Shown one piece after another: positions 296-58,957 of a stretch of 64,000 nucleotides of DNA. Each line of letters opens with the position of its first letter. Position 1 is the stretch's first letter. The stretch lies in NCBI RefSeq assembly GCF_002159705.1, contig NZ_NFJD01000002.1, forward strand, positions 248,001 to 312,000, given 5' to 3'. The DNA comes from Elusimicrobium sp. An273 (GTDB taxonomy: Bacteria > Elusimicrobiota > Elusimicrobia > Elusimicrobiales > Elusimicrobiaceae). Under the pieces are notes generated by a model, which had not been told where the DNA came from, made no database searches, and saw only the letters and a list, made by a program, of their open reading frames with translations. Made by a program: the position numbers and the translations under genes.

Positions 296-1585
296 TTATT
301 TGTATTTCGCCTGTTCTTTGATGAAATCAAACACTTTGCGTTCGCTGAGCGTAGCCAAAATGTGCGCTTTGCGTTCGTTGAAGAAAGCTTTGATTTTCTT
401 TTCGTCTTCTTTATTTTGAGAATTGGCGGCGATGCTCTTGTCCAATTCGGCTTTCCAGTCGGCCTCGGTGGCTTCCAGGTTTTCCTTTTTGGCAATGGCG
501 TGCACGATGTATCCGATGCGCAAATCCTTCTCTACGCTGGGGCGGATGCGTTCTTCAAACGCTTTTTTCTGGTCGGCCGTCAGCTGTTCGGGTTTGAGCT
601 GGGTCATGCTGCGCACAAAGTTATTTAAAGAAGATTCCGTATATTCTTCCACCAGGCTCTGCGGCAAATCAAACTGGTTCATTTTAACCAAGTGGTTTTC
701 GATTTGGGCCACTTCGTCGCGGCGGGCGTTTTGCTTGGCTTCTTCGTCCAGGCTTTCTTTGACTTTGGCTTTCAGCGCGTCCAGCGTGTCAAAGCCCATG
801 TCCTTGGCGAAAGAATCGTCCAACGCGGGCACGATTTTGTTTTTAATATCGTCCACCGTTACGTGGTAGGAAATCGTATCGTTGCCTTCTTTGGTTTCAA
901 TGTCTTTTACGTCGCCTTTTTTGAGGCCTTTAATGCCTTCGGCCAAGCCGGGCATCGTCTGCGGGGCGGACATATCCACCAGTTCGCTGTCGGCGCTTAA
1001 TTTATAATCGTCCGTACCGTTGCGTTTGCCGCTGTAGTGAATAACGGCGTAGCATTTATCGTCAATCACCGCGCCTTCGGCCGCGCTTTCCAAGCGGGCG
1101 TTGGCGTCCAGCACGCGGTTTAAATTTTCGGCCACGTCCTGTTCGGTAGCGGTTTCCGGTTTTTTGGCAATTTCAATGCCTTTGTAATCTTTTACTTCAA
1201 ATTCCGGCGCCACATCCACCGCAATTTCAAACGGGAAGGCTTTTCCTTCCGCAAAGTTCATAAAATCGGCTTTGGTCAGCGTGGGGACGGCCACGGCGTC
1301 CAGCTTGGCGTCCGTGATGGCGGCGTTGATGGCGGCTTTGACCGTTAAGTCCAACGCGCGTTCCTTAATATGTCCGGCAAAATTTTGTTTGACCAAGTCC
1401 AACGGTACTTTGCCGGCGCGGAAACCTTGCATTTGCGCACGGGATTGGACTTGCACGGCGGCGTTTTGAAAGCTTTTGGTAACCAGTTCCGGGGAGGCTT
1501 CCACCGAAAGCGTTACGCGGCAGCCTTCTTTTTTCACTTGTTGGGTTTTTACTTCCCCGCTCTGGGCAGTTTTGAAGATGGACAT
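296..1585 (-). CDS. tig: Trigger factor (ribosome-associated chaperone, peptidyl-prolyl isomerase)
   Basis: Trigger factor binds the ribosome exit tunnel and shields nascent chains; its middle FKBP domain is a prolyl isomerase. The N-terminal ribosome-binding signature GFRAGKVP is seen near residue 54, followed by the FKBP-like middle part and a long helical, Lys/Glu-rich C-terminal chaperone domain. The length of 429 residues is normal for the family. I chose the ATG at 1585 because AGGAG lies 10 nt upstream; an in-frame ATG at 1615 has no such site and adds ten atypical residues. It stands alone before a terminator and is transcribed in the same direction as the two tRNA genes just upstream. 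Confidence 0.95.
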   Translation of the reverse strand: MSIFKTAQSGEVKTQQVKKEGCRVTLSVEASPELVTKSFQNAAVQVQSRAQMQGFRAGKVPLDLVKQNFAGHIKERALDLTVKAAINAAITDAKLDAVAVPTLTKADFMNFAEGKAFPFEIAVDVAPEFEVKDYKGIEIAKKPETATEQDVAENLNRVLDANARLESAAEGAVIDDKCYAVIHYSGKRNGTDDYKLSADSELVDMSAPQTMPGLAEGIKGLKKGDVKDIETKEGNDTISYHVTVDDIKNKIVPALDDSFAKDMGFDTLDALKAKVKESLDEEAKQNARRDEVAQIENHLVKMNQFDLPQSLVEEYTESSLNNFVRSMTQLKPEQLTADQKKAFEERIRPSVEKDLRIGYIVHAIAKKENLEATEADWKAELDKSIAANSQNKEDEKKIKAFFNERKAHILATLSERKVFDFIKEQAKYK

Positions 1586-1625
1586 ACTTAACTCACTCCT
1601 ATTCGTATCGGACATGCCGAAAATC

Positions 1626-1983: not shown

Positions 1984-2039
1984 ACAAGTAAGGCCTTGCG
2001 GCCGGCGTCATATCTTCTTATTTAGCGATGGAACATAAA

Positions 2040-3182
2040 ATGAACATACTTCCCAAAACCCTCAAACACACGTTTCTTCTGGCAGGAGCCGTTGCTTTTT
2101 TTGCGCTTCCGTCTTACGGGCAACTCCCTGAAAAAATTCTCCCGGCGGCCAAAACAGCCCTTCAGCCCGCTTTTAAAGTACCGCTTGCGCAAAAAATTGC
2201 CGTTCCCGGCGGTCTGCGTCAAAATTTCGGCCCGGCGGTTTCCGTCTACACAGCGCGCCCGATTCCTACCCCGGAACCTCCTATCATTCCCAAAGTGTTT
2301 ATTGCCCGCTTTTACCCGCTGACGGACAGCCAAACCACACTGGTGCAGGGCTTGCTGCGCAAAAAACTGGCCAAACCGGCCCCCACTTTTTATGAAATGT
2401 TCAAACAAGCCGTCTATCTGCACCAAAAAAATCCGTCCGCTTTTAAAAAAGTCAGCCAAAGATATTATTATGAAATGACGCTGTTTTTAAAACATGCCGC
2501 GCACGTGACGCAGCAAGCCGGCTATCCGGCGGTGGCGGCGTATCTGAAGGAACATAAAGGGGATTTTCCCACCCTGCATTCCGGCGGAACGCTCTCCGCA
2601 AACGACAGATCCGCCCGTATGCTGACGTTTTATGCGTCCGAAGAAATGAATACACTGATGAACCAAATTTTATCCCGCCCGGCCGAAAAACAAATCATTA
2701 CCGACGACGAATGGGTGGCCATCAACGTGCTTAGCACCTTCTTCCCGGCCCAAACACGCCCGGCGTTCTATAATTTCTTGCTGGACAAGCAATATAAGGA
2801 ACTGCAAATTCTTTCCTTGGATCCTTATATGCACAATTCCGATACCCGCCGCCTGGTGCAAGGCACCATTGATCCGCAGTCCGTGCACGCGCCTTCTTTG
2901 GCCAAGCGCATTTCCTCGCGGGAAAGATACCTGCAATACTTAACCCAGCGCAAAGCCGCTCTGCCGGGGACGATTTCGCACAAACGGCAGCAATATGCCA
3001 AAAACCAAGTGATCTACGATATTTTATCCGCCGAAGGGGAAACCGCCCCCAGCGCCATTCAGGCCAAAAACGCGTTAGACAAGAGCTACCGCGAATATAC
3101 CCAAGCCTCCCTCCAATTAAAGGAGATTTCGGCAAAAATCGAACAGGTTACGGATGAATTAAACTTTTTACGCACGAAATAA
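2040..3182 (+). CDS. Secreted coiled-coil protein of unknown function
   Basis: I do not recognise this family. A signal peptide (MNILPKTLKHTFLLAGAVAF..., cleavage near SYG-Q) is followed by a Pro-rich segment with the motif KILPAAKTAL and then a helical body. The last 60 residues (SYREYTQASLQLKEISAKI...) are heptad-like and probably coiled coil. No cysteine pair, lipobox or enzyme motif is seen. The mature N-terminus resembles the QKxLLPAxRA motif of the eight secreted paralogues at 33-44 kb, but the catalytic GExH motif of that family is absent. The start at 2040 gives the cleanest signal peptide; an in-frame ATG at 2028 is also possible and neither has a strong ribosome site. The gene is 12 nt upstream of the DUF885 gene, in one operon. 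Confidence 0.75.
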   Translation: MNILPKTLKHTFLLAGAVAFFALPSYGQLPEKILPAAKTALQPAFKVPLAQKIAVPGGLRQNFGPAVSVYTARPIPTPEPPIIPKVFIARFYPLTDSQTTLVQGLLRKKLAKPAPTFYEMFKQAVYLHQKNPSAFKKVSQRYYYEMTLFLKHAAHVTQQAGYPAVAAYLKEHKGDFPTLHSGGTLSANDRSARMLTFYASEEMNTLMNQILSRPAEKQIITDDEWVAINVLSTFFPAQTRPAFYNFLLDKQYKELQILSLDPYMHNSDTRRLVQGTIDPQSVHAPSLAKRISSRERYLQYLTQRKAALPGTISHKRQQYAKNQVIYDILSAEGETAPSAIQAKNALDKSYREYTQASLQLKEISAKIEQVTDELNFLRTK

Positions 3183-3194
3183 ACGGAGACCTTT

Positions 3195-5030
3195 ATGAAA
3201 AGAACCCTATTGCCGGCTTTGGCAGGCTGTTTGGCCTGCTTGGCCTTTGCAGTGCCCGCGGCGGCGCAGCCCGCTTTTGATTTTGAAGACATAGATACCC
3301 TTTTGGAAGACAATGCGCTAAACGATGCCGCCAACCGCTATGCTTCCGTACTCTTGTCTTTCTTTCCGGAACGTGCCACCCGGCTGGGGTTTTCTTCGGC
3401 CAATTCCAAATTGACCGACCGCTCCGCCTCCAACAACGCGTTGGCGTTAAATGCGCTGCGTTCCGTAAAAGAAATGACGGATCAAATTACGCCTTCCCAG
3501 CTTTCAAAAGCCAACCAAACCGATTTGCTCCTCTTGCAAAACGCACTGGCTGCGGATATTTGGCAATTGGAACAAAACCGCCCCGAAACGGATCCCTTAT
3601 ATTATACGGAAGCGTTTGACGCCATTTACGATTTGATGCTTAAAAAAACGACGTCTTCCGCCCAGCAACGGGCCGATTTGCTGGCCCGCGTGAATGCCTT
3701 GCCCCAAGTAGCCCTTCAAGCTCAATCCAACCTGATTCAGCCGCCTGCTTTTCTTTCGCAGCTGGCCATGGAAAGAGCCTACTACGCGTATTTGTCGTTT
3801 GATGAAGTAACCGACTTTCTGCTCCAAGGCGTGGAAGACGAAGTCTCCATCTCCCAAATCAAGCGCGACGGGCAAACCGCCAAACGCGCCATTAAACAAA
3901 TGTTTGACTGGTTTAAAAGCTTATCCCAAGAACAGAACACGCAAGATTTCCGTTTGGGCACAGAGGCCTATGCCCAAATTCTAAAAGACCGGTACCAAAT
4001 CACGGAAAAACCGGCCAAATTGGAAAAGAAACTGCAAAAGGAATTCTTGTCCGCGCAGAAAAATTTAGCGCTGGCCTTGGAGCCGTTTACCATGGAAACG
4101 GCCGAAGAGGAAGTAACCGTTGTAGACGATTTAAACGCCAAACCTACCGTGCAGCAAACCCCGGCCAAAACAAAGAAAAAAGGCAAATTTGTCCCTCCAT
4201 CCGCGCAGGATTTTTATAAGGCCGCCCAGCGGGTGGCCGCCGCGCCCGCCGGCGGGGATTTAATTCGCGCGCTCTCCCAAGATGCCGCCTCCTTGGCCCA
4301 ATTTTTTGAACAAGACGGCACCCTGCCCGCCAGCGCCATTCGCTTTTCCGTCAAACAAATGCCGGCGTTTTACGCCTACACGCAGGCCTATTTGTTTGTA
4401 CCGCCTTTTGGCAACCAGCTTTCCCCCTCTTCGGATTTGTTCCTGCGGCTGCCTTCCGGCAACAAATTGGCCCGCCAGGAACAACTGAAAAAGGATTTCA
4501 ACGCGCCGGTTCGCAAATTGCTTTTAAGCGGAGAATTGGTGCCCGGCCGATACTATCAAACCGTGGCCGGGAAAAATTTATCCGCTATCCGCCGCTTGTA
4601 TCCGTCCCGCAGTTTGGCCAACGGCTGGAGCGCCTACGCCCAGCGCTTGGCGCGGGAACGCGGATATCTGGTAACGGATGAAGACTTGCTGTTTTTGGCG
4701 TGGAATGAATACCGCCGCGCCGCCGCGGCGTTGGTGGACGTACGGCTGCAAACCAAAGAATACTCATACGCGGACGCGCTGAACTTTCTGGTAACGGAAA
4801 ACGGCTTTGAACAGGAAGAAGCGGAAACCCTGCTAAAAGACATTTCGGCGCACCCGGCCGAAAGCCTCAGCTATATCTACGGATTGCAATCCCTTGAAAA
4901 CGCCCGCCAAAAATACGCCAAGAAAGAAGGAAAAGAATTTAATTTGTCTGCCTTTCATTCCCTGGTACTGCAAGCGGGCAATGTACCGCCCGACCAGTTA
5001 GAAAAAGAAATCAAACGCTTGAAAAAATAG
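3195..5030 (+). CDS. Secreted DUF885-family protein lacking the metal-binding motif
   Basis: 611 residues with a signal peptide (MKRTLLPALAGCLACLAFAV..AAAQ). The body follows the DUF885 family from end to end: an N-terminal SFFPERATRLGF block, a central helical region, and a C-terminal block (NGWSAYAQRLARERGY near residue 475, then AESLSYIYGLQSLENAR) that matches the EGWALYAE..L and GQALAYKIGQL blocks of the family. The family's putative zinc motif HExxPGHHxQ, expected before NGWSAY, reads GELVPGRYYQ here, so all three His are gone. I infer a non-catalytic relative with a structural or binding role outside the cytoplasm. A GGAG site 6 nt before the ATG supports the start. It is the second gene of its operon. 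Confidence 0.8.
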   Translation: MKRTLLPALAGCLACLAFAVPAAAQPAFDFEDIDTLLEDNALNDAANRYASVLLSFFPERATRLGFSSANSKLTDRSASNNALALNALRSVKEMTDQITPSQLSKANQTDLLLLQNALAADIWQLEQNRPETDPLYYTEAFDAIYDLMLKKTTSSAQQRADLLARVNALPQVALQAQSNLIQPPAFLSQLAMERAYYAYLSFDEVTDFLLQGVEDEVSISQIKRDGQTAKRAIKQMFDWFKSLSQEQNTQDFRLGTEAYAQILKDRYQITEKPAKLEKKLQKEFLSAQKNLALALEPFTMETAEEEVTVVDDLNAKPTVQQTPAKTKKKGKFVPPSAQDFYKAAQRVAAAPAGGDLIRALSQDAASLAQFFEQDGTLPASAIRFSVKQMPAFYAYTQAYLFVPPFGNQLSPSSDLFLRLPSGNKLARQEQLKKDFNAPVRKLLLSGELVPGRYYQTVAGKNLSAIRRLYPSRSLANGWSAYAQRLARERGYLVTDEDLLFLAWNEYRRAAAALVDVRLQTKEYSYADALNFLVTENGFEQEEAETLLKDISAHPAESLSYIYGLQSLENARQKYAKKEGKEFNLSAFHSLVLQAGNVPPDQLEKEIKRLKK

Positions 5031-33108: not shown

Positions 33109-34233
33109 TTATTCTTCCGACTGAAGAATTACCGTCATATCCGAGCCAAGAATTTTCTTATACGGCGAGGGTTTTACCCAGCTTTCCACCAACCGGGCCC
33201 GCGGCGAAGAATGAAATTGGGCCCGCACGGCAGCTTCTTCCCGGAAATAAATAAACAAAGGGTTATTCAGCGTGAGATATTCCGGCACCGTAAACAGTAC
33301 CACAAAAGAATCTCCCCCCAGCATAGAAGGGAGGTTAAAGTCCTGATTATACCCTACGTGGCCAAAGCCCGCATAGACGACAATCAGCGCATCCGGCTCC
33401 TGCTGGCGCAGCGCCCGCAGGTATTGCGCCCACATTTTGTTGCGCAGGCGCACGCCTTCAAACGAGCAAGAAAAATCTTCATACATTTGATCGGTCGGTT
33501 TTTGGCGGGTCGTCCGCACGATGAAATTTTGCAGTTCATTCTCCCGCTCTAATCCAATCACCGGTATCCCCGCTTTTACCGCGGCGTACAACACCCGTAC
33601 CGATACCCGCCGCGTATCCGGCAGCAGCTGCGCGATTTCTTCCGGGCGCGTAACGGTCCGGTCTGCCCCCAGCGGCAATTGTTCATAAGCCGGCAAGAAC
33701 TCCGTGGCCAAATAAATTTTCCGCCCGGGATACAGCTTCGGCAACGCTTGGATGAGGCGGGTTACTTCCTCCGCCAAGGGCACTATGCCATGCACTTCCC
33801 CCAAGTAGAGCGTTTTTAAATCTTTGGGAAGGTAGGCCGCGTAAGGGATGTCGCCGGTATACACACAGCTCTGGATGCGCCCGACAATGGAAGCGGAATG
33901 CGCATGAAATTTTTCATAATTTTGGGTAAACCGCTGGAGAGATTTAAAAATATAGGCATTATTTTTCTTGGAAACAGCCCCGTAAAGCGCAGGATCCAAC
34001 TGGGCAGAAATATGCGTATTCCATAAGTCCGCCCCATGGGCAGACATAACCGCCGGCGGCAAATACATATACATATTGCCCAATTCAAACGAAAGGCATT
34101 TTCCACCGGCCGCCTGTACGCCGGATTTGGAAAGTGCCGGCAGCAGCGGGCGCAGCGCTTTGGCCGCTTGGGCAAATGCGCTTTGCGGGAACACCAGAAC
34201 AACCAGAAGTAAAAAACAGACGATTTTTTTCAT
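33109..34233 (-). CDS. Secreted ChaN/EreA-like protein, paralogue 8 (most divergent)
   Basis: 374 residues with a signal peptide (MKKIVCFLLLVVLVFPQSAFA-Q). The core motifs of the array are kept: LYLGEVHG at 142-149 (GExH, H148), IYLATEF near 173, RLRNKMWAQYLR near 262 and DALIVVYAGFGHVGY with H292. GExH and the late GxGH are the paired metal or haem-ligand motifs of the ChaN/TIKI/EreA superfamily. The N-terminal QKxLLPAxRA motif is altered (QAAKALRPLLPAL), the YPLED block is replaced by GLEREN and the GFDY ending is lost, so this copy is the most divergent. GAGGG before the ATG overlaps the previous stop, so it is the operon's last gene. Confidence 0.75.
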   Translation of the reverse strand: MKKIVCFLLLVVLVFPQSAFAQAAKALRPLLPALSKSGVQAAGGKCLSFELGNMYMYLPPAVMSAHGADLWNTHISAQLDPALYGAVSKKNNAYIFKSLQRFTQNYEKFHAHSASIVGRIQSCVYTGDIPYAAYLPKDLKTLYLGEVHGIVPLAEEVTRLIQALPKLYPGRKIYLATEFLPAYEQLPLGADRTVTRPEEIAQLLPDTRRVSVRVLYAAVKAGIPVIGLERENELQNFIVRTTRQKPTDQMYEDFSCSFEGVRLRNKMWAQYLRALRQQEPDALIVVYAGFGHVGYNQDFNLPSMLGGDSFVVLFTVPEYLTLNNPLFIYFREEAAVRAQFHSSPRARLVESWVKPSPYKKILGSDMTVILQSEE

Positions 34234-34242
34234 ATTCCCTCT

Positions 34243-35658
34243 TTATTTTTGGGGCACCGCCCACGCATAATCAAACCCTACCTGCCGGCCTAATAAACGG
34301 GCGTTTTCTCCCGTCCAATAATACAAGCTGGAAGTAATATGATTGCGCACAAAGAACGGGTCTTCTTTTCCCCACACGTGATAGAGCAGGGAGTGGCGAG
34401 AAGGCACTTCGGAAGTAACGTCCAACACTACGGGGTGTTCGCCGGCAAAAAATTTAGGAAGCGCAAAAGGCATTAACCACGAAGTATGCCCGACACCGGC
34501 ATAGACCAAGAACAACGCGTCCGGATCCTGCTTGCGGATTTCCGTCATTTTTTCTTCTATGACGCGCGCCCAAATTTTATTGCGTTCCGACAACGCAAAG
34601 AGCGACAAAAATTCTGCTTTCGTCATATTTTGATGAAACATTTTAAACTGGGTCGGATCTTCCAGCGGGTACACCTCCACATTTCTCATCAAGGCCACAA
34701 AGAAGAACGACAGGGCGTACCCGATTTGGTCGCTGTGTTTAAGAGTAATCGGCTCCAGCGGCGTTTCTGGCACGCGGCGGTAATAGGTGGCAATGGTATT
34801 GCGGGAACCCGCCTGGGCCGGCGGCAAATCTATAAATTCCGTGAACAGGACAATCCGGCGGTTCGGATTCTGTTGCCGAATCTCATTTAACAAAGAGGCC
34901 AAGTTGTATTGAATTTCATCATGATGATGCGTTTCTCCAAAGAAAACGAGTTTTTCTTTGGACAGTCGGGATGCCAAATAGCTGATTTCATCTTCCCCTT
35001 GATAGCGGACTAACTCGTTTTTCCCCTGCCCGGGGTATTTGCGCAGCCAGTCGGATTTATCGGCAAATCCGCGGCTGAAAAACAGGCTCAGTTTATTGGT
35101 TTTCAAAGCCGTTTCGCTAGGGGTAAGCTGCGGCATAAAAATGGCTCTTAATACAGGAATATCTTCTTCGGGCGCGAAGCGGGCCTTCCAAAGATCCATA
35201 ACGGCTTTATAACTTTCGTATACTTCCCGCTGCAGGCCTTCGGCCTTGCCCGCCGTCACTTCTTCCGGCAAGGCAGTCAAATCCGCAATGACACTCGATT
35301 TCTTTTTAGGCTTTGCAAACAGGCGGATTTTTTTTAAAGACGCATCCAAAAGCTGTTTCCAATTTTTTGAATCAGACGTTGTTTTTTTGTTAAAAAAGAT
35401 TCCCTGTACGGCCGCCGGGTCGCTCCAAGAAGCCACTTCAGCGCTTCCCAAGCCGGACTGCAGCGCCTGCACCTTTGCGACGGAAGGAGAAACGACCTTT
35501 CCCGCCGCACCGGGCAAACGGCCCGCCTGTGGGGCAACGGCCTTGGGCCCCGCCGTCAGCGCGCGTACGGCTGGCACCGCTTTTTTCTGTGCCCATACCG
35601 GCACGCCCGCCCCCACCACACAACAGGCCAACAACAAAATACGAAAAAACTTACCCAT
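34243..35658 (-). CDS. Secreted ChaN/EreA-like protein, paralogue 7
   Basis: 471 residues, signal peptide ending near VWA-Q. The mature start is QKKAVPAVRAL. The N-terminal 220 residues are a helical region special to the array. The core has LVFFGETHHHDEIQ (GETH, H244; the extra His run is unique to this copy), RRIVLFTEFIDLP, EVYPLED, RNKIWARVIEEKM and ALFLVYAGVGHTSW (H391). It ends GFDYAWAVPQK. The fold should be ChaN-like; haem binding or metal hydrolase activity are both possible. AGGAG stands 6 nt before the ATG. Its stop is 9 nt before the next start, so the genes are one operon. Confidence 0.78.
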   Translation of the reverse strand: MGKFFRILLLACCVVGAGVPVWAQKKAVPAVRALTAGPKAVAPQAGRLPGAAGKVVSPSVAKVQALQSGLGSAEVASWSDPAAVQGIFFNKKTTSDSKNWKQLLDASLKKIRLFAKPKKKSSVIADLTALPEEVTAGKAEGLQREVYESYKAVMDLWKARFAPEEDIPVLRAIFMPQLTPSETALKTNKLSLFFSRGFADKSDWLRKYPGQGKNELVRYQGEDEISYLASRLSKEKLVFFGETHHHDEIQYNLASLLNEIRQQNPNRRIVLFTEFIDLPPAQAGSRNTIATYYRRVPETPLEPITLKHSDQIGYALSFFFVALMRNVEVYPLEDPTQFKMFHQNMTKAEFLSLFALSERNKIWARVIEEKMTEIRKQDPDALFLVYAGVGHTSWLMPFALPKFFAGEHPVVLDVTSEVPSRHSLLYHVWGKEDPFFVRNHITSSLYYWTGENARLLGRQVGFDYAWAVPQK

Positions 35659-35671
35659 ATTAAACTCCTAT

Positions 35672-36949
35672 TTAAGGCATTGCCGGCGTTTCAAACGGAA
35701 GCAGTACCTGAGCGTCAAAGCCCAAAACAGATGAATAATTTGAATCTTTTTTCCAAGTCATTAAATACGGTTTATCCACTTCAGCCATGCGGTAAGGAGT
35801 TTTCCCTTGCAGCAACCCCAAAAAACCGCTTTGAAAACCGTTTCTAAGTTCGATGCAAAAAGGCTTTTTGTCTTGCAGCATGCGGGCCAGCGACTCCGCA
35901 ATGCTCTTACTAATATGCTTGTTCCCGGCATATACAAAAAACACGGCATCGGGCGTCTGGCGAAGCGTTTGCTCCATCACCCGCCGGATAATGCCTTCCC
36001 AATACTTATTGCGCACCGGCATCACCCGAAAAGACGTATTGGCCACCGTAAACTCCAGTTGGCTCAGCTCCACCGTTTTTTGATACGTAAACCGGATATC
36101 TTCCAGCCCGTAAATATCCATTGACAGCGACTGCCCCAGCCGATAAATTTCGTTCGCAAAATCGGGATTCTTTTCAAAAAAGTCCGCCGGCACCGCTTGC
36201 CCGGCCTGCCAAAAGGACGGATGACTGCTTGGCAAAAACTCAGAAAACAAAACGATTTTCCGCTTCGGATAGCGCGCATGATACTGCCGCAGCAGCGCCG
36301 CCATTTCCGCCTGCAAATTGGCCCGTCCGTGCACTTCCCCCACCAGAATCAGGCGGTTTTCCGGCCCAATCGTCTGCGCCAACAGCCCGGGGCGGTCTAT
36401 TTCCGTAATTTGTAAAGCGGCGTGGATATCCGCCTGATGCGCCATTACATACGCGGCCTGTTTTTTAAAGTTCGGCGCAATCCGCAGCAGCCAGTCGTTG
36501 TTTTCGACTGCAAAGCGGGTATTCGTCGTCAAGAAAGGGTACCAATCCAAAAACAGCCGGGCCTGTTCGGCCGTAAAACCCAACGCAAGGAATTTAACGG
36601 CCTGCAAACGCAGGGCTTGGGGCGCGTTGCTAAAAATAAACTTTTCTATCTCGTCCAGTTCCCGCAAGGTGCCGCGGCGGCTCTGCTGCAACAGCACCGA
36701 GCGGTTCACCGCCGCAGACAAACTTTCCAGCTGTTGTAAGGAAATCTGCACCGGCGGCACATACGAAAACGGCCCCTTTACGCTGACGGGAGGAGCCCAA
36801 TGCAAGACGGACGCGCCGGCGGCTTTCTTCACGCTTCCGGCACCGGCCGCGCGCAACGCCGGAACAAGCTGCTTTTGGGCCCACGCCTGTAGAGGCGTTC
36901 CCAAACTGCTCAGGATGAATAGGCTGCCCAGCAAGATGCGTTTTAACAT
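35672..36949 (-). CDS. Secreted ChaN/EreA-like protein, paralogue 6
   Basis: 425 residues with signal peptide (cleavage near AWA-Q) and mature start QKQLVPALRAA. Core motifs: LILVGEVHGRANLQ (H207), KRKIVLFSEFLP, IYGLEDIRF in place of YPLED, RNKYWEGIIRRVM and DAVFFVYAGNKHISKS (H345). It ends GFDAQVLLP. The late motif reads GNKH instead of GxGHTS, so this copy diverges at the second active-site element together with paralogue 8. AGGTG just before the ATG overlaps the TGA of the preceding gene. Confidence 0.76.
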   Translation of the reverse strand: MLKRILLGSLFILSSLGTPLQAWAQKQLVPALRAAGAGSVKKAAGASVLHWAPPVSVKGPFSYVPPVQISLQQLESLSAAVNRSVLLQQSRRGTLRELDEIEKFIFSNAPQALRLQAVKFLALGFTAEQARLFLDWYPFLTTNTRFAVENNDWLLRIAPNFKKQAAYVMAHQADIHAALQITEIDRPGLLAQTIGPENRLILVGEVHGRANLQAEMAALLRQYHARYPKRKIVLFSEFLPSSHPSFWQAGQAVPADFFEKNPDFANEIYRLGQSLSMDIYGLEDIRFTYQKTVELSQLEFTVANTSFRVMPVRNKYWEGIIRRVMEQTLRQTPDAVFFVYAGNKHISKSIAESLARMLQDKKPFCIELRNGFQSGFLGLLQGKTPYRMAEVDKPYLMTWKKDSNYSSVLGFDAQVLLPFETPAMP

Positions 36950-36953
36950 ACGT

Positions 36954-38297
36954 TCACCTGTTTTCTTCCGGCACTACCAAGGCATAATCAAAACCTGTTT
37001 TCTGCGCAAAAATGCGCCCCAGTCCGCTTTTCCAATAGTATAGCGTTAAATCGGAATGAGGGGTAAAGAAGACATCCTCTTTTCCCCACACGGTATACAA
37101 GGCGGAAACGGACGAAGGCTGACCAAGCGTTACTTCTACCACCGCCGGTTTTTCAGCGGCGAAAAACTTGGGCAACGAATAGGGCAACAGCCACGAAGTA
37201 TGCCCGATTCCGGCATACACCACAAACAAGGCGTTGGGATCGGTCTGCCGAACGGCGGCCATTTTGCGCTCTATAATCCGCGCCCAGGTTTTATTGCGAA
37301 GCGAAATGGAAAGCGCCGGATTTTTGACCTGGCATATAGGCCCGCATTCCTGTTCCAACACTTCCATCAGCCGGCGGTCTTCCAGCGGATAAATTTCCAC
37401 TTTTTCTTGGAACAAACGCAAAAATAAATTGGCTGCATAATCGATGCGCGCGGCGGACGAAAAATCTTCTTGGTTTAATTTGTCCAAAGACATTTCCTTG
37501 GTTTTCAAATAATAGTCCGACAGGGAACTTCCTTCCCGGGGAGCGTTGGAATTTAAATCAATAAATTCCGTAAATAAAATCACCCGGCGGCGCGGATTTT
37601 GCTTTTTTAAAAACAAAACTAATTTGGTGATGGTCTGCTGTACGGAAGAAATCCCGTGCTGTTCGCCGATAAGGATCATTCTTTCTTTGTTTAATTTTTG
37701 GGCAAATTCGCCCAGCACATTGTCCGACTGCAGCCGCCCCAATAATTTGCGCCCTTGGTCGGGCACGTTGGCGAGCCACTGCATTTTGCCAAAGAAATTT
37801 CTGCTGGCTAGCAAAACGATTTTGTTGTTTTTTACCGCAAATTCGGACGGCCATTCAATCGGCTTATAAATGCTTTTAAACAGCCAATTGTTTAAAAACT
37901 GGTTGTTCCATAACCAAAGTTTCTTTACTTCCGTTACCACTTCCCGGTTCCGCTTCGCCCATTCCGAACTCACGTTGGCCTGATAATACAGCTCCAATAA
38001 CTGCGAAAGCAGATCTTCCATTTCTTCTTGCTGAACCCGTATGTTTTTTAACGAAACATTGGCCAAAAACGCCTCTTCCGCCGCCGCAGCGTCTGCCACT
38101 TCCTCCAACTCTTTGCCTAACGCCGAGCGAAAACCGGACGTTCCTGTTTTCCCCGTTTGCCCGCCAACCGCATTTTTTACGGCGTCTCCTTTTACGGCAC
38201 GCGCAATGGGCAGCAGGCGTTTTTGCGCCCACAACGAAGGGGCCGCCAGCATGCCGCATCCGAGCAAAAGGAGTACAAATACAATTCTTTTTTTCAT
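36954..38297 (-). CDS. Secreted ChaN/EreA-like protein, paralogue 5
   Basis: 447 residues. The signal peptide ends near LWA-Q and the mature start is QKRLLPIARAV. A helical N-terminal region with an acidic stretch (KELEEVADAAAAEEAFL) precedes the core: MILIGEQHGISSVQ (H214), RRVILFTEFIDLN, EIYPLEDRR, RNKTWARIIERKM and ALFVVYAGIGHTSW (H366). It ends GFDYALVVPEENR. The start is preceded by TATAGT 11 nt upstream and lacks a good ribosome site, so a second internal promoter is likely here (-35 weak). Confidence 0.78.
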   Translation of the reverse strand: MKKRIVFVLLLLGCGMLAAPSLWAQKRLLPIARAVKGDAVKNAVGGQTGKTGTSGFRSALGKELEEVADAAAAEEAFLANVSLKNIRVQQEEMEDLLSQLLELYYQANVSSEWAKRNREVVTEVKKLWLWNNQFLNNWLFKSIYKPIEWPSEFAVKNNKIVLLASRNFFGKMQWLANVPDQGRKLLGRLQSDNVLGEFAQKLNKERMILIGEQHGISSVQQTITKLVLFLKKQNPRRRVILFTEFIDLNSNAPREGSSLSDYYLKTKEMSLDKLNQEDFSSAARIDYAANLFLRLFQEKVEIYPLEDRRLMEVLEQECGPICQVKNPALSISLRNKTWARIIERKMAAVRQTDPNALFVVYAGIGHTSWLLPYSLPKFFAAEKPAVVEVTLGQPSSVSALYTVWGKEDVFFTPHSDLTLYYWKSGLGRIFAQKTGFDYALVVPEENR

Positions 38298-38342
38298 CTT
38301 TAACTTATACTATATTTCTTTTTTTAAGTTCTATAAAAATTT

Positions 38343-39743
38343 CTACTGCATCCGCTCCGCCCACGCAAGGTATTGGCGCAGCAGTTTCCCTCTGAAAGAA
38401 GCCGGCAGCACCCACAAGTAATCAAACCCGCTGTTTTGAACCAATTGCTTGGCGTCCGCCCCTTCCCAGTACGAAAGGGAGGCCTGCTGGGGGTTGGAAA
38501 ACGGCGCGCTGTCCGCCCCCCACAGGGCGTACAGAACATTATTTTTAAAAGCAAGATCAAACTGAAATTCTACGACGACCGGTTTTTCCGGGGCGAAGAA
38601 AGCCGGCAGCGGGCTTTGGCGCCGCCAAGACGTATGGCCCGTCCCGGCGTACACGATAAACAACGCATCGGGATCCGTCCGGCGGATTTCATCCATTTTT
38701 TGCCGGATAATCCGCGCCCAGGTTTTGTTGCGGTACGAAACCCCCAACGCCTGCGCTTCTTGTCCGCCAGACGCCTTCAGCAAATCCGAAAAATCCCGAT
38801 CTTCCAAGGGATATACTTCCACCCGGGCCTGCAGCAACCGCTGGAACACGCCTCTGGCATAGGGTTGTTTGGCCGCGGCTTGTTTGGAAAGCTGCGGCGC
38901 CGTATGCGCATCTATTCTTCGGTAATAGGTTTCCAAAGTTTGATTGGCAATTTGTTTTCCTTGCGAAGGCAACGCTAAAAATTCCGAAAACACCACTATT
39001 CGGCGGGCGGGATTTTGTTTTTTGAGCTGTACAATCAAATCCCCCACCGCTTGTTGTACTTCAAATCTAAAATGCGTTTCCCCCAGCAGAATCAATTTTT
39101 CCTGCTGCAGGCGTGCGGCCAGCTGCCGGGCCAGATTGCCGGAAGTAACGGTTTTCAGGGCCTGGCGCCCTTGGTTCGGATACCGATCCATCCACGTAAA
39201 TTTTTGATACAGGCGCTGTAAATAATTTAAAAGCAGTCTGTTGTTGGCCACCGCTACCGAAGAATACTCCCGCATCGGCATAATTCCCTGCATATACTTC
39301 AGCATTTTTTGAAAACGTCTATCGCCAAGGCCCACGTTATCTATTTCCTGCAGCGTTTCCTGAAATTCGCCCAACGTTTGCAAATGCCCGGTGCCCGTGC
39401 CTCCGGCCGCCAGATGTTTGCGCCACGCGGTTACGGGGCGGTGCAAATCCACCCGTTTCAACAAAACCTGCTGTTTGAGGCGTCTCCAAAGAGCGGACTC
39501 TTTGGGGGACGCCATAAAACGCTGCGGCATTTTTACCGAAGGCTGCCAGGAGAGGCAAGCGTCTTTTAAATGTTCCGAATAAGGAACCGAAACGCCCTTT
39601 ATGAGGTTTTTTTGCACTTGCAGCGGCTGTTTAACGGCCCCGGCCCGAACGGCCGGCAGCAGCTGTTTTTGCGCAAACGACGTCCCGGCCCCGAACAGGC
39701 CGACGGTGATGAAGATAAATAAAAATTTCTTTTGTATCCTCAT
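38343..39743 (-). CDS. Secreted ChaN/EreA-like protein, paralogue 4
   Basis: 466 residues. Signal peptide to SFA-Q, mature start QKQLLPAVRAG. The long N-terminal helical region is closest to paralogue 1 (shared TSVTNWRKH/VTAWRKH and EFQxTLxxID blocks). Core: LILLGETHFRFEVQ (H224), RRIVVFSEFLALP, EVYPLEDRDF, RNKTWARIIRQKM and ALFIVYAGTGHTSW (H370). After GFDYLWVLP it carries an extra basic tail (RGKLLRQYLAWAERMQ), again as in paralogue 1. The ATG follows the previous stop by 2 nt without a ribosome site, so it depends on translational coupling. Confidence 0.78.
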   Translation of the reverse strand: MRIQKKFLFIFITVGLFGAGTSFAQKQLLPAVRAGAVKQPLQVQKNLIKGVSVPYSEHLKDACLSWQPSVKMPQRFMASPKESALWRRLKQQVLLKRVDLHRPVTAWRKHLAAGGTGTGHLQTLGEFQETLQEIDNVGLGDRRFQKMLKYMQGIMPMREYSSVAVANNRLLLNYLQRLYQKFTWMDRYPNQGRQALKTVTSGNLARQLAARLQQEKLILLGETHFRFEVQQAVGDLIVQLKKQNPARRIVVFSEFLALPSQGKQIANQTLETYYRRIDAHTAPQLSKQAAAKQPYARGVFQRLLQARVEVYPLEDRDFSDLLKASGGQEAQALGVSYRNKTWARIIRQKMDEIRRTDPDALFIVYAGTGHTSWRRQSPLPAFFAPEKPVVVEFQFDLAFKNNVLYALWGADSAPFSNPQQASLSYWEGADAKQLVQNSGFDYLWVLPASFRGKLLRQYLAWAERMQ

Positions 39744-39745
39744 TT

Positions 39746-41008
39746 TTAGGGCAATATCAGTGCGTAATCAAAGCCGGTCTGCCTGCCTAACAGACGGGCC
39801 TCCCGCCCCTGCCAATAGAACAACGCCTGCTTGCGGAAATACGGATGTTCCCGATCCCACACCCCGCAAAGCGTATTTATTTCGGAAGGTTCCCCCACCG
39901 AAAATTCCACCACGGACGTTTTTTCTTTGGCAAAAAATTTGGGCAGGGCATACGGCATAATCCAGGAGGTATGCGCCATGCCGGCGTACACCACAAACAG
40001 CGCATCCGGATCCGTCTTGCGGATCTGCGCCATTTTATGCTCCATCATCCGCGCCCAGGTTTTGTTGCGAAGGGTAATAGCCAAGGCAGACACCTGCATA
40101 TCCCGCAGCAGGCCCTCTTCCTGATAAATCATCGAGCACAGCTTGCGGTCTTCCAGCGGATAAATTTCAAAATGATCGTCCAGTAAAATTTCAAACAAAT
40201 CCCGCGCATAATCCAACCGCTTAAAAAGATGCGGATCATCCTCTTGGATCCGTTCGGTGGGGAACTCGCTGGCGCGGCGATAGTAAGAAGCCAGCGAAGC
40301 GGGAGCTCCCTCCCGTGCCGTGGGCGGCAAATCTATAAACTCGGTAAACAACACAATGCGCCGGCCCTGGTTACGATCTTTCAATGCATAGAGCAGCTGC
40401 CCCACCGCCCGCTGGATTTCCGGCACATAATGAAATTCCCCCAGGAAAACGATATGGCTGTCCTCCACTTTGGCCGCCAGCTGCTTGATTAAATTGCCCG
40501 AAGATACATAGCCTAACTCCGCTTGCCCCTGTCCTTTGCGTTGTTTGAGCCACTGGGTTTTTTGCAACAGTGATTTGCTGGCCGCCAGCACGATTTGATT
40601 GTTCTGATAGGCAAACGGGGTGTTCTCCTGTAGCGGCGTATACAACGTTTCATACGCGCCGCCATAGATTAAATCTTCATTTTGTTCCCACGTTTGGTCA
40701 ATCTGGCGCAATAACTCGTCGTTTTTTGCCTGTCTTGTTTTATCCACCTGAAAAAGCGCGCGGCGCTGCAAGCTGTGCTGAAACTTCAGCCGGGAAGCAG
40801 GCGGCACTGCTTGGGCGGCAGGAAAACGGGTTAAAGCCCGAGCGGCAGTGGTGGCGCCAAACGAAGAGGCACTTCCACAGGCGCGGGCGGCCGTTTTGGG
40901 CGCATTTGTAAGCAAGGCGCGGCCCGCCGGCACCAGATTTTTCTGAGCCCATACCGGCGCCGCCGGAACAGATAAAATAAAAAACAACAACAGGACTAAA
41001 TTTTTCAT
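39746..41008 (-). CDS. Secreted ChaN/EreA-like protein, paralogue 3
   Basis: 420 residues. Signal peptide to VWA-Q, mature start QKNLVPAGRAL. Core: IVFLGEFHYVPEIQ (H193), RRIVLFTEFIDLP, EIYPLEDRK, RNKTWARMMEHKM and ALFVVYAGMAHTSW (H346). It ends GFDYALILP. I chose the ATG at 41008 because the signal peptide begins there; the longer frame adds 64 residues of noncoding character. The -10 box TATAGT ends 6 nt before the ATG and no ribosome site exists, so the mRNA is predicted leaderless. The promoter and its upstream repeats are a copy of those before paralogue 1. Confidence 0.8.
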   Translation of the reverse strand: MKNLVLLLFFILSVPAAPVWAQKNLVPAGRALLTNAPKTAARACGSASSFGATTAARALTRFPAAQAVPPASRLKFQHSLQRRALFQVDKTRQAKNDELLRQIDQTWEQNEDLIYGGAYETLYTPLQENTPFAYQNNQIVLAASKSLLQKTQWLKQRKGQGQAELGYVSSGNLIKQLAAKVEDSHIVFLGEFHYVPEIQRAVGQLLYALKDRNQGRRIVLFTEFIDLPPTAREGAPASLASYYRRASEFPTERIQEDDPHLFKRLDYARDLFEILLDDHFEIYPLEDRKLCSMIYQEEGLLRDMQVSALAITLRNKTWARMMEHKMAQIRKTDPDALFVVYAGMAHTSWIMPYALPKFFAKEKTSVVEFSVGEPSEINTLCGVWDREHPYFRKQALFYWQGREARLLGRQTGFDYALILP

Positions 41009-41014
41009 ACTATT

Positions 41015-41043
41015 ACTATATCGTTTTACCGTCTTAAAAAACA
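41015..41043 (-). promoter_or_regulatory. Leaderless promoter of paralogue 3 (copy of the 44051 promoter)
   Basis: TGTTTT, 17-nt spacer, TATAGT, then AATAGT and the ATG. Spacing to the ATG and to the upstream repeats is identical to the promoter at 44051-44079. Confidence 0.65.
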
Positions 41044-41051
41044 GAGTCTTT

Positions 41052-41097
41052 AGGCCTATTGTTTCCCTCCAAAAAGGCCTATTTACCTCTAGGCCCT
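41052..41097. repeat. Three phased AGGCCTAT-type repeats upstream of paralogue 3
   Basis: AGGCCTAT at 41052 and 41075 and AGGCCCT at 41091. Relative to the predicted start they lie at about -44, -67 and -83, positions usual for activator sites. The same set with the same spacing lies before paralogue 1. Confidence 0.7.
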
Positions 41098-41145
41098 CGG
41101 CGGGGCAAAAAGCGCGTCGGACGTTCTTGTAAGGTTTCTTTTTAA

Positions 41146-41178
41146 GCGGCGCTCCGCCGCCCGGATAATCCCGGGCGG
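41146..41178 (-). other. Two mutually exclusive GC hairpins after paralogue 2
   Basis: GCGGCG/CGCCGC (41146-41160) and CCGCCCGG/CCGGGCGG (41157-41178) share four bases, so only one can form at a time. They lie 30-60 nt past the paralogue 2 stop codon on the minus strand. No T run follows, so termination is uncertain. Confidence 0.5.
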
Positions 41179-41209
41179 GAAAAGCGACATTTGGTAACAA
41201 GCAGGAGGA

Positions 41210-42544
41210 TTATTCTCCGGGCACAACGAGCAGGTAATCAAAACCGCTGCAGTTGGCCAGCTGGCGGGAGTCTTCGCCTTGCCAGGAGAAGAAACTGGGA
41301 TGCAAAGGCGGATTTATAAAAAGCGGATCATCGGAAGGCCAAAGGATTTTAAGCGAGGTATGATCCAGCAATCTGTTTAAAGCCAGTTCCACCACCACCG
41401 GTTTTTCAGCGGCGAAAAATTTGGGCAATGCCATCGGAGAAAGCCACGAAGTATGCGCTTGGCCGGCATAGACAATAAAAAGCGCGTCCGGATCTGTTTG
41501 GCGTATTTCCGCCATTTTAGCCGCCATCACCCGCACCCACGATTTGTTGCGCGCAGTCGTAATGACAGGCGCATCCAGCGAACCGCTCGTCTCTTTGGCC
41601 AATAAGGCAAACTGCCGGGTATCTTCCAGCGGATAGACTTCCACTTGGTGCTTAATTAACTGACGAAAAAGCGACGGAGCGTATAAAAACAGCCTTTGGT
41701 CTGTCGCCGCCAGCGGCTGAATTTCTGGTGCGGTAAAGTGTTTGTAATAAGTTGCCAAAGTCTGCCCGTTGCCGCTCTTTTCTTTGGGAAGCGGGATAAA
41801 CTCCGTAAACAGCACGACGCGGCGGTTTGGGTTTTGCTTTTTTAAAGTCAGCACCAAATTCACTACCGCCCGCTGAAAGGCCGGAACAAAATGATACTCC
41901 CCCAGCATAATTAATTTTTCTTGGCTTAACTGCCGCGCTAATTGGGCAAAAACGTTGCTTCCGCCTTCGGCCCCTTGCGGCTGATGCTGCGGATCTGCTC
42001 CCTTCACAAAAGCCTCTTTTGCCAGGTTCGTGTTCTGTTGGAGCCATTTCATTTTTTGAATATAATGGTTCAGGGTATGCAAAACGATTTGGTTGTTTTG
42101 TATGGCAAGCGGAGAAAAAACCGTCATATGGAAAAAAGAAGTCGAAAAGAGCTGCGCGTAATCAAACGAGCTGTAGGTGGTTTTCAAGCGTTCAATTTCG
42201 GCATACGTATTGATAAATTTTTGCAATTGCTGCAGGTCATTTTCTTTCAGTTCCCGCTCATATCCCCGGGCAGAAAAACTTTTTAGCAACCCGGCAGACG
42301 CATCTGACGCGCCGGTTTGAGCACTGAATAGGTCTTTTAAAGTGAAATGGCGGCTTACAGGCGCCCCTTGGCCCGCAGGCAATGCAAAAGCGGCGCCAGT
42401 GGCCAAAGCGGGCAAGGCGGGCGTTTTTACGGCCGTTTGCAGTGCCGTTTTTCCAACGACCGCTTTTGCGGCGGGCAGCATATTTTTTTGCGCCGCCGCC
42501 GGAAGCGCCAAACAAAACACCAAAAATAAAATTATTTTTCTCAT
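41210..42544 (-). CDS. Secreted ChaN/EreA-like protein, paralogue 2
   Basis: 444 residues. Signal peptide MRKIILFLVFCLALPAAA-Q, mature start QKNMLPAAKAV, then an Ala-rich region. Core: LIMLGEYHFVPAFQ (H218), RRVVLFTEFIPLP, EVYPLEDTRQ, ARNKSWVRVMAAKM and ALFIVYAGQAHTSW (H364). It ends GFDYLLVVPGE. An in-frame ATG at 42559 is possible, but the signal peptide begins at 42544. TAAAAT lies about 13 nt upstream; the phased GGCCTAT repeats of paralogues 1 and 3 are not present here. Confidence 0.78.
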   Translation of the reverse strand: MRKIILFLVFCLALPAAAQKNMLPAAKAVVGKTALQTAVKTPALPALATGAAFALPAGQGAPVSRHFTLKDLFSAQTGASDASAGLLKSFSARGYERELKENDLQQLQKFINTYAEIERLKTTYSSFDYAQLFSTSFFHMTVFSPLAIQNNQIVLHTLNHYIQKMKWLQQNTNLAKEAFVKGADPQHQPQGAEGGSNVFAQLARQLSQEKLIMLGEYHFVPAFQRAVVNLVLTLKKQNPNRRVVLFTEFIPLPKEKSGNGQTLATYYKHFTAPEIQPLAATDQRLFLYAPSLFRQLIKHQVEVYPLEDTRQFALLAKETSGSLDAPVITTARNKSWVRVMAAKMAEIRQTDPDALFIVYAGQAHTSWLSPMALPKFFAAEKPVVVELALNRLLDHTSLKILWPSDDPLFINPPLHPSFFSWQGEDSRQLANCSGFDYLLVVPGE

Positions 42545-42649
42545 TTCTGCATTTACCATTTTAAAATCCGTTTTTAGCCCGATCCATTTGGAGTTTTTCC
42601 CCCGTCTTTGGGCCCAGCCAAACGCTGGCCCGGCGGGCGAAATTCCGCC

Positions 42650-44044
42650 CTAGAGCGAATTTATAAAAGAAACATACTTGCGCTGCAGTTTCCCTTTCAG
42701 CGAATGCGGCACCACCACCAAATAATCAAATCCGCTGTTGCGCGCCAGCAGCGAAGCGTCTTCTCCCGTCCAATACGAGAAAGAAGCCCGAAGCGGCCTT
42801 GCAAAGAGCGGAACTTCTTCCCCCCACAAAAAATGGAGGATATTCTTTTTTACAAACGGATCAAACTGAAATTCCACCGTTACCGGTTTTTCCGGCGCAA
42901 AAAAGGCGGCCAACGGATATTGCCGCTGACGGTTTACGTGACCTAAGCCCGCATATACAATAAACAATGCATCCGGATCGGTTTTGCGGATCTGCGCCAT
43001 TTTATATTCCATCACCCGCGCCCATATTTTATTGCGGGAAGCCACTTGCAGTAACATGGCTTTTTGTCTGTTCGCCGCCTTTAATAAATCAATCAGCACC
43101 ACATCTTCCAGCGGATAAACTTCCACCTGCGCACGAACCAGCCGCAGCAGCACATCCCGTGCGTATCTTTTTTGCTGGGCTTGTTCTACAGAGAGCTGCG
43201 GCGAAGTGCTCTCGTCCACCCGGCGGTAATACGTTTCGGCCGTTTGGTTGACGACCTGCGGCCCGGCTACGGGCAAATGTGCAAATTCGGAAAACACTAC
43301 AATGCGGCGGTTGGGGTTTTGCTTTTTCAGTTCCAAAATCAAATCGCCCACGGCCTGCTGCACTTCCAGCTGATAATGTCCTTCTCCCAGCATAATCAAT
43401 TTTTCCTGCCGCAGCCGGCCCGCCAGTTGGCGCACCACATTCCCCCACGAGGATATGACCGAATGCAGTGCATCGCGGCCTTGGTTGGGGTAGTGTTTCA
43501 TCCAGTTAAACTTTTGATGCAGATACTGTAAATGACTGACGAGCAGTTTATTGTTCAGTACGGCCTCGGCGGAATAGTCCGATAAGAGGGATGCCTCGGG
43601 GCGGAAGAAAAGGAATTTCTTAAAGTCCGGATCCTGCAACGTCATCCGGTCAATTTGTCTTAATGTCGCTTGGAATTCTTCGGGGGTTTGCAAACTGCTT
43701 TCATAGGAGGCGGCCTGGTGTTTGCGCCAGTTTGTTACAGACGCATAAGGCGTCAGAAACGGCTTACTCAACTGTTTTCGAATAAACTCCCTCAGCAAAA
43801 ATTTATCGGCCCCCGGCAATCGTTTTATCCTCTCATAGGCAGCCGGAACGTTTCTTCCGCCAAAAACAGCGGCATCCGGCGGCAAATTTAAGCCGGGCAC
43901 CCCCACCGCGGAGATTCCTTTTGCCAGATGCTGAGACACCCCCGCTGGCCGGGCCATCCCCGCGCGCACGGCCGGCAGCAGATTTTTCTGCGCATAGGCG
44001 GGCACCGTTAAACATAACATAAAAAACAAATAAGACTTTCTCAT
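42650..44044 (-). CDS. Secreted ChaN/EreA-like protein, paralogue 1
   Basis: 464 residues. Signal peptide to AYA-Q, mature start QKNLLPAVRAG. The N-terminal helical region matches paralogue 4. Core: LIMLGEGHYQLEVQ (H223), RRIVVFSEFAHLP, EVYPLEDVV, SRNKIWARVMEYKM and ALFIVYAGLGHVNR (H369). After GFDYLVVVP comes the tail SLKGKLQRKYVSFINSL. ChaN relatives bind haem; EreA and TIKI relatives with the same GExH fold hydrolyse esters or peptides, so the function stays open. The start at 44044 is 6 nt after TATAGT with no ribosome site (leaderless). It is the first gene after terL. Confidence 0.8.
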   Translation of the reverse strand: MRKSYLFFMLCLTVPAYAQKNLLPAVRAGMARPAGVSQHLAKGISAVGVPGLNLPPDAAVFGGRNVPAAYERIKRLPGADKFLLREFIRKQLSKPFLTPYASVTNWRKHQAASYESSLQTPEEFQATLRQIDRMTLQDPDFKKFLFFRPEASLLSDYSAEAVLNNKLLVSHLQYLHQKFNWMKHYPNQGRDALHSVISSWGNVVRQLAGRLRQEKLIMLGEGHYQLEVQQAVGDLILELKKQNPNRRIVVFSEFAHLPVAGPQVVNQTAETYYRRVDESTSPQLSVEQAQQKRYARDVLLRLVRAQVEVYPLEDVVLIDLLKAANRQKAMLLQVASRNKIWARVMEYKMAQIRKTDPDALFIVYAGLGHVNRQRQYPLAAFFAPEKPVTVEFQFDPFVKKNILHFLWGEEVPLFARPLRASFSYWTGEDASLLARNSGFDYLVVVPHSLKGKLQRKYVSFINSL

Positions 44045-44050
44045 ATTATT

Positions 44051-44079
44051 ACTATACCGCTTTCGGCCTTCCAAGAACA
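44051..44079 (-). promoter_or_regulatory. Leaderless promoter of paralogue 1
   Basis: TGTTCT, 17-nt spacer, TATAGT, then AATAAT and the ATG. The region up to 44132 is homologous to that upstream of paralogue 3. Confidence 0.65.
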
Positions 44080-44087
44080 GAGTCATT

Positions 44088-57094: not shown

Positions 57095-57106
57095 CTTTTG
57101 ATACGT

Positions 57107-57138
57107 ACGGAAGGAACGCCTTTCAGCGTTCCTTCCGT
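57107..57138 (-). other. 12-bp hairpin between two envelope genes
   Basis: ACGGAAGGAACG / CGTTCCTTCCGT with an 8-nt loop, 12 nt before the start codon at 57094. No T run follows on the minus strand. The arm near the start holds no ribosome site, while the distal arm contains AAGGAA; it may set processing or relative expression. Confidence 0.65.
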
Positions 57139-57148
57139 TAGATTTTCA

Positions 57149-58660: not shown

Positions 58661-58672
58661 ATGCATTTCTCC

Positions 58673-58957
58673 CTACTGTTTCAATGCGTCCACCGCGTTT
58701 TGCACGCCCGATTGCACCGCCTGCTGTTCCATAGAAGCCCGCTGATAAATAGCCCGCCGGCGCAATAATTCTTCCTCTCGTTGCTGTTTCTGTTTCAGTT
58801 CGGCAATTTGCCGTTCCGTTTCTTTTACTTGGGAATAAAAGTAAAAAATACCAATTACCCAAACGAGCAAAACGATTAACACCACCGCCCGCGCAATAAA
58901 AATCATTTTTCGCGAAACCTGAATAGGATGAGTAGATCTTTTTTTATTCTCATTCAT
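58673..58957 (-). CDS. Small membrane-anchored coiled-coil protein
   Basis: 94 residues: basic cytoplasmic tail, one membrane helix (IARAVVLIVLLVWVIGIFYF) and a heptad-rich coiled coil (VKETERQIAELKQKQQREEE). The shape is like FtsB/DivIC or a pilus-assembly link protein, but no signature allows a name. It lies between the two paralogues with AGGAG before the ATG, so it is part of the same assembly. Confidence 0.72.
   Translation of the reverse strand: MNENKKRSTHPIQVSRKMIFIARAVVLIVLLVWVIGIFYFYSQVKETERQIAELKQKQQREEELLRRRAIYQRASMEQQAVQSGVQNAVDALKQ

What the first reader, a model, noticed from the sequence alone, without database searches (positions are those of the whole stretch)
3195..5030. 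DUF885 protein with erased HExxPGHH motif
The flanking family blocks (NGWSAYAQRL and AESLSYIYGL) are intact, but the putative zinc motif reads GELVPGRYYQ. Loss of all three His with the rest preserved points to a pseudoenzyme that keeps a structural or binding job in the envelope.
Basis: partly seen in the sequence, partly recalled or inferred. Interest (0 to 1): 0.5.

Follow-up and report, generated by a model that had tools for sequence, protein, structure and literature searches.

The report
Order-wide dead DUF885 zinc peptidase
This gene makes a probably secreted protein built like a zinc protein-cutting enzyme but without its metal site; the loss is shared by almost a whole order of bacteria that has kept the dead version under selection, so it probably binds proteins rather than cutting them.

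Summary
The ORF at 3195-5030 is a full-length DUF885 protein (PF05960, E 5e-52). Its HExxPGH motif reads GELVPGR. The protein has two His in all and no other HExxH-like motif.

The loss is not local. In 135 copies from 135 of 149 genomes of the order (Elusimicrobiales), 129 keep none of the three ligands, 3 keep one and 3 have gaps. All 40 outgroup copies keep all three. The dead copies form one clade (100/99 with motif columns removed). Their sister is a live DUF885 that also lies near lon.

Selection is purifying (dN/dS 0.04-0.20), and the model has the peptidase fold (Z 33 to 3u24). In the sister family of the order the gene lies directly behind lon and ahead of an ABC-2 exporter; the small-genome genera lost the exporter but kept the dead peptidase.

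Best reading: an exported pseudopeptidase used as a peptide- or protein-binding factor. Loss of the zinc site is shown; binding is inferred.

The parts
3195..5030 (+). DUF885 pseudopeptidase gene, 611 aa
   Evidence: PF05960 E 5.1e-52 full length; order-wide ligand loss; AlphaFold2 pLDDT 88.3
3195..3266 (+). probable signal peptide, about residues 1-24
   Evidence: charged start, hydrophobic run and AAA before Q, by eye; similar N-termini in relatives
4098..4181 (+). low-confidence, Lys-rich loop, residues 302-329
   Evidence: pLDDT under 50
4452..4454 (+). Pro420, fixed in the order (fraction 1.00), 7 of 40 outgroups
4530..4559 (+). former zinc motif, GELVPGRYYQ (residues 446-455) in place of HExxPGHH
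4620..4649 (+). NGWSAYAQRL (residues 476-485) in place of EGWxxYxE; third ligand lost
4839..4844 (+). Asp549-Ile550 in place of the Arg-Tyr pair common in live members
4857..4886 (+). AESLSYIYGL block (residues 555-564)
296..1615 (-). trigger factor (tig), the divergent neighbour in this family
   Evidence: PF05697 and PF05698; neighbourhood
2028..3182 (+). 384-aa ORF just upstream, no Pfam family above cut-off, signal-like start

Best explanation
The gene encodes an exported pseudo-metallopeptidase with the DUF885 fold, which resembles M32, M3 and ACE peptidases. A live zinc peptidase lost its two His ligands and its Glu ligand once, on the branch to Elusimicrobiales. The dead form has been kept by purifying selection since, also in the small-genome genera. 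It most likely works without catalysis: the old substrate cleft or its lobes bind peptides or unfolded proteins in the envelope, as a holding or adaptor factor in protein quality control. Shown at the sequence level: ligand loss, one origin, fold, selection, locus. Inferred: no zinc and no peptidase activity, export, cleft binding, the quality-control role.
For: Ligand loss in 129 of 132 order copies that cover the site, the other 3 keeping one of three; 40 of 40 outgroups intact. One origin, 100/99. Fold: 3u24 Z 33.3. dN/dS 0.035-0.195 in 39 pairs. Backbone residues around the site frozen (P450, G451, G477, Y481 at 98-100%) and new fixed residues Pro420 and Asn476. Locus next to tig, clpP and lon; live sister also near lon. 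Known pseudopeptidases that bind through the old active site (PMC11266112, section 4).
Against: Binding was not tested. In the window's own family E483 and nearly all R511 near the site are lost, which may mean a changed or unused cleft. Lon, ClpP and trigger factor are cytoplasmic, so the locus says little about an exported protein. The gene was not found in 14 of 149 order genomes; of four looked at, all end or start a contig at the locus, ten were not looked at.
Confidence: 0.55

Rival explanations
1. It is a scaffold: the fold is kept for contacts on its outer surface and the old cleft plays no part.
For: Ligand positions 446 and 452 drift freely and inner-shell residues are lost in f1, while structural Gly, Pro and Trp stay.
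Against: Pro420 and Asn476 at or next to the old site became fixed, which suggests that this region still matters.
Confidence: 0.25
2. It is the extracytoplasmic partner of the ABC-2 exporter encoded next to it in the sister family.
For: The DUF885 stop overlaps the ABC ATPase start by 4 nt in 6 of 11 loci measured; the permease is present in 53 of 59 f2 genomes.
Against: The permease is found in 2 of 90 f1 genomes, the dead DUF885 in 81 of 90. It can at most be an added role in f2 and g12.
Confidence: 0.1
3. It is still an enzyme, with another metal site or another chemistry.
For: Glu447 is kept in 30 of 132 order copies and His588 in 110 of 134.
Against: Two His in the whole window protein; Glu447 varies freely across the order.
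Confidence: 0.05
4. It is a decaying pseudogene.
For: Only the lost motif.
Against: No inner stops in the listed matches, dN/dS 0.035-0.195, presence in 135 of 149 genomes.
Confidence: 0.01

Closest known systems
DUF885 proteins of known structure (PDB 3u24, 3o0y, 3iuk)
   Same: Sequence family and fold
   Different: 3u24 and 3o0y show HExxPGH and EGW in the alignments; the window protein has lost the ligands. No function is given in their titles
Live DUF885 sister L140 (genome G171, family f9 of the class)
   Same: Nearest relative of the dead clade (100/100), signal-like start, lon nearby upstream
   Different: Keeps HEAIPGHH and EGWALYCE; one gene lies between it and lon
M32 carboxypeptidases, M3 oligopeptidases and ACE
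   Same: Related helical fold by structure (Z 14.9, 14.7 and about 12)
   Different: Active zinc enzymes; low sequence identity (7-12%). Z of this size on a helical protein is middling by the tool's note
Known metallo-pseudopeptidases (Goe of M13, Tma108 of M1, Ebp1 of M24, MPP alpha of M16)
   Same: Peptidase folds kept for other uses after loss of active-site residues; some bind through the old site (PMC11266112, section 4 read)
   Different: Other families, those described mostly eukaryotic; MPP alpha works beside an active partner. DUF885 and PF05960 do not occur in that review

Membership tests
DUF885 (PF05960), by descent | Profile match over the whole domain | tested here: met
   1-532 of 532, E 5.1e-52
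DUF885 (PF05960), by descent | DUF885 fold | tested here: met
   Model close to 3u24, 3o0y, 3iuk, Z 33.3, 31.3, 30.6
Active DUF885 / Peptidase_MA zinc peptidase | HExxPGH zinc motif | tested here: not met
   GELVPGR; H446 in 1 and H452 in 2 of 132 order copies
Active DUF885 / Peptidase_MA zinc peptidase | Glu third ligand in EGW | tested here: not met
   Asn in the window, Glu in 0 of 132 order copies
Active DUF885 / Peptidase_MA zinc peptidase | Zinc bound and peptide hydrolysis | not testable with these tools
   Needs purified protein
Pseudopeptidase (functional, non-catalytic homologue) | Catalytic and metal residues lost | tested here: met
Pseudopeptidase (functional, non-catalytic homologue) | Retained by purifying selection | tested here: met
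   dN/dS 0.035-0.195 in 39 pairs; open frames in listed matches
Pseudopeptidase (functional, non-catalytic homologue) | Non-catalytic function such as binding | not testable with these tools
   Inferred only
Obligate subunit of the neighbouring ABC-2 exporter | Occurs together with the permease | tested here: not met
   Permease in 2 of 90 f1 genomes, dead DUF885 in 81 of 90

The most novel reading that the evidence does not exclude
A bacterial order turned its exported, lon-linked DUF885 peptidase into a non-catalytic peptide- or protein-holding device of the envelope and kept it as its only DUF885 protein in 134 of the 135 genomes where one was found, also in small genomes: a bacterial metallo-pseudopeptidase without a live cousin to regulate.
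Probability: 0.3. Interest if true: 0.62.

Novelty: new variant of a known kind. Interest (0 to 1): 0.48.

Why it matters
The metallo-pseudopeptidases in the review I read (section 4) are mostly eukaryotic, and some work beside an active partner. Here almost a whole bacterial order keeps only the dead form, and a live sister at a comparable locus gives a before-and-after pair. That makes the question of what a peptidase fold is good for without catalysis directly testable. It also warns against reading DUF885 hits in these genomes as metallopeptidases.

Tried and rejected
Rejected: a true HExxPGHH elsewhere in the protein (two His in all). Another family (DUF885 is the only Pfam match at E up to 1; the best folds are DUF885). 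Decaying pseudogene. Spread between lineages: the gene tree gives f1 and f2 as two clades, 100/97 and 100/100, in agreement with the family codes. Regulator of a live DUF885 paralogue: only G033 has one, of a distant subfamily. Obligate exporter subunit.

Led nowhere: NCBIfam has no model for the protein, an f2 copy or the live sister. The 384-aa ORF upstream has no Pfam match above cut-off and no similarity to the prophage array. Papers: 13 hold DUF885, 12 listed; of these I saw a passage of PMC12572635 and listings of the rest. One holds PF05960 and one holds both Elusimicrobi- and pseudoenzyme (listings only). PMC11266112: abstract, outline, section 4 and word finds. Papers: listings only. 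I found no account of a dead DUF885 lineage in these searches; nothing wider is claimed.

Rows dropped and limits: the tree used 60 of 175 aligned rows, chosen by an identity threshold and a length of 450 or more; four long-branch live rows of the 64 were left out, and with them the dead clade still had one origin (SH-aLRT 99). One search did not draw 2 of 12 f2 loci (L211, L213), because my gene caller dropped the ORF. The 40 outgroups are those I fetched, not every class hit, and include the live second copy of G033. dN/dS comes from my own Nei-Gojobori script: 40 of 90 pairs printed, one saturated. The lists are cut, so 'no inner stops' holds for listed matches. Besides the ligand columns, Gly413 (16 of 132), Gln455 (39 of 132), Glu483, Arg511 and Gly579 also fell in the order.

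Full report
Observation. The ORF 3195-5030 (+) encodes 611 aa. Pfam finds DUF885 and nothing else at E up to 1: residues 58-606 on profile 1-532 of 532, E 5.1e-52. In the alignments with the solved DUF885 chains 3u24 and 3o0y, GELVPGRYYQ lies on HEAIPGHYTQ and HEANPGHHWQ, and NGWSAYAQRL on EGWAVYTERM and EGWALYSEQV. The protein has two His (553, 588), no HE pair and no HxxxH, so no alternative motif exists. The genome (G000, 1.50 Mb, 14 contigs, 97.8% complete) holds one DUF885.

Who it is. A scan of named genome contigs gave 50 loci at 39-86% identity. Most titles name Elusimicrobiales, Elusimicrobium, Elusimicrobiaceae, Elusimicrobia or Candidatus Avelusimicrobium; some say only 'uncultured bacterium'; several name rumen, rectum or colon. 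NCBI places Avelusimicrobium in Elusimicrobiaceae, Elusimicrobiales. Below, f1 is the window's family, g1 its genus and f2 the other family of the order (codes of the genome search). The habitat of f2 was not checked.

The loss is order-wide. DUF885 is found in 135 of 149 order genomes: 81 of 90 in f1 and 54 of 59 in f2 (counted from the rows). I aligned one copy or fragment from each of the 135 with 40 outgroup copies. Of the order copies, 132 cover the site: H446 is kept in 1, H452 in 2, Glu476 in 0, and Asn stands at 476 in 118. Per sequence, 129 keep none of the three ligands, 3 keep one and 3 have gaps. The outgroups keep each ligand in 40 of 40. Tyr550 is kept in 0 of 134 against 28 of 40. 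Of 30 columns conserved at 90% or more in the outgroups, the three ligand columns fall to 0-2% in the order, while P450, G451, G477, Y481, P554 and G595 stay at 98-100%; some other columns fall too, such as Gly413 to 12% and Gly579 to 46%. New constraint appears as well: Pro420 is fixed in the order (fraction 1.00; 7 of 40 outgroups; Leu in the live sister), and Asn476 (0 of 40) stands at 89%.

Two stages of erosion. f2 keeps further residues common in live enzymes: E483 53/53, R511 52/54, H519 54/54, H588 54/54. f1 keeps E483 in 0 of 79, R511 in 1 of 79, H519 in 37 of 80 and H588 in 56 of 80. The simplest reading is that the ligands went first and the surroundings later.

Single origin. With the motif columns removed, 34 order copies and 26 live rows need one change between dead and live, with 100/99 support, in 100% of 200 bootstrap trees. 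f1 (100/97) and f2 (100/100) are clades. A quick tree with four more long-branch rows agrees, SH-aLRT 99. The sister, L140 from family f9 of the same class (100/100), is live (HEAIPGHHLQ, EGWALYCEE) and has a signal-like start. It lies downstream of a lon gene 66% identical to that of the order, with one gene between, so the live ancestor probably sat near lon too. Only G033 has a second DUF885, live and of a distant subfamily. The double hits of G099 and G105 are two stretches of one frame; those of G006, G039, G072 and G149 are fragments of one gene.

Selection. Of 90 pairs at 80-99.5% identity, the 40 closest were printed; 39 gave dN/dS of 0.035 to 0.195 and one was saturated. The window and its nearest relative gave 0.11. 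The listed matches have no inner stops. Of the 14 genomes without a hit, four were looked at: in G057 and G100 the contig ends beside tig, in G106 it begins beside tig, and in G097 it begins inside the exporter permease, each just where the DUF885 gene is expected. The other ten were not looked at.

Neighbourhood. The order in f2 is tig, clpP, lon, DUF885, ABC ATPase, ABC2_membrane_2 permease, a ~290-aa protein without Pfam match, and a gene that clusters with a glycosyltransferase. In the 10 of 12 f2 loci drawn, tig shows in 8, clpP in 8, lon in 9, the ATPase in 10 and the permease in 8; some misses are antisense ORFs chosen by my gene caller or contig ends. Lon lies upstream on the same strand within about 0.5 kb in 52 of 54 f2 genomes; in G126 and G139 the DUF885 gene is at a contig end (hand tally of coordinates). 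The DUF885 stop overlaps the ATPase start by 4 nt in 6 of 11 loci. Genus g12 of f1 shares the arrangement. In f1, tig is the divergent neighbour within three called ORFs in 11 of 11 g1 loci and in 5 of 7 g11/g14 loci, and in g15. The permease is found in 53 of 59 f2 genomes and 2 of 90 f1 genomes (g12, g13). The ~290-aa protein is found in 52 of 59 and in g12 and g13, with one weak hit in g15. Lon is found in 136 of 149 order genomes but lies about 42 kb away in G000. In most of f1 the dead DUF885 has thus outlived its operon.

Structure. AlphaFold2 with 24 sequences gives pLDDT 88.3 and pTM 0.86, with low confidence at residues 1-30 and 302-329. Foldseek finds 3u24 (E 3.1e-19), 3iuk and 3o0y. 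VIA-align gives them Z 33.3, 30.6 and 31.3, then an M32 carboxypeptidase 14.9, an oligoendopeptidase F 14.7 and ACE about 12. By the tool's note, Z near 13-15 on a helical protein is middling; that DUF885 belongs to the Peptidase_MA clan is told in PMC12572635 (passage).

Mechanism. Shown: fold, loss of ligands, one origin, selection, locus. Inferred: no zinc and no catalysis (nearly certain for a zinc mechanism), export (signal-like N-termini read by eye), and binding of peptides or unfolded proteins by the old cleft or its lobes. The last step rests on the retained fold, on pseudopeptidases that bind through the old site (PMC11266112, section 4) and on neighbours that handle proteins. It is the weakest step.

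Against. Residues near the old site are worn down in the window's own family, which fits a scaffold as well as a changed cleft. Cytoplasmic neighbours say little about an exported protein. I had no coordinates to place the conserved residues.

Novelty. Pseudopeptidases are a known kind. An order-wide, single-origin loss in DUF885 without a live cousin is a new variant of it; I found no account of it in the library searched.

Noticed in passing
window 33109-44086 (-): Eight consecutive same-strand paralogues (374-484 aa, mostly with signal-like starts such as ...AQKxLLPAxRA), 23-51% identical to each other in BLASTP, no Pfam match for any of the eight and no PHROG match for the five tried. They lie between the head-tail adaptor and terminase genes of a prophage-like region.
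   Followed up: partly
window 19323-45685: Prophage-like region: tail-fibre-like protein, nozzle protein (PF25675), major head protein (phrog_212), head-tail adaptor (phrog_332), terminase (PF03237).
   Followed up: partly
window 2028-3182 (+): 384-aa ORF with a signal-like start, 12 nt upstream of the DUF885 gene; among the 31 loci compared it clusters only with that of the nearest relative L148.
   Followed up: partly
L118 / L242 (genome G033): The one live second DUF885 seen in the order (HEALPGHD, EGWAMY), a long branch in a distant subfamily, perhaps acquired separately.
   Followed up: partly
f1 loci, and L273: Several genes with a type IV pilin-like GFTLIELLVVVLIIG start lie around the locus in the f1 family (cluster c2).
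   Followed up: no
window 55571-62200 (-): Four consecutive ORFs of 505-547 aa without Pfam match; two of them are weakly alike.
   Followed up: no
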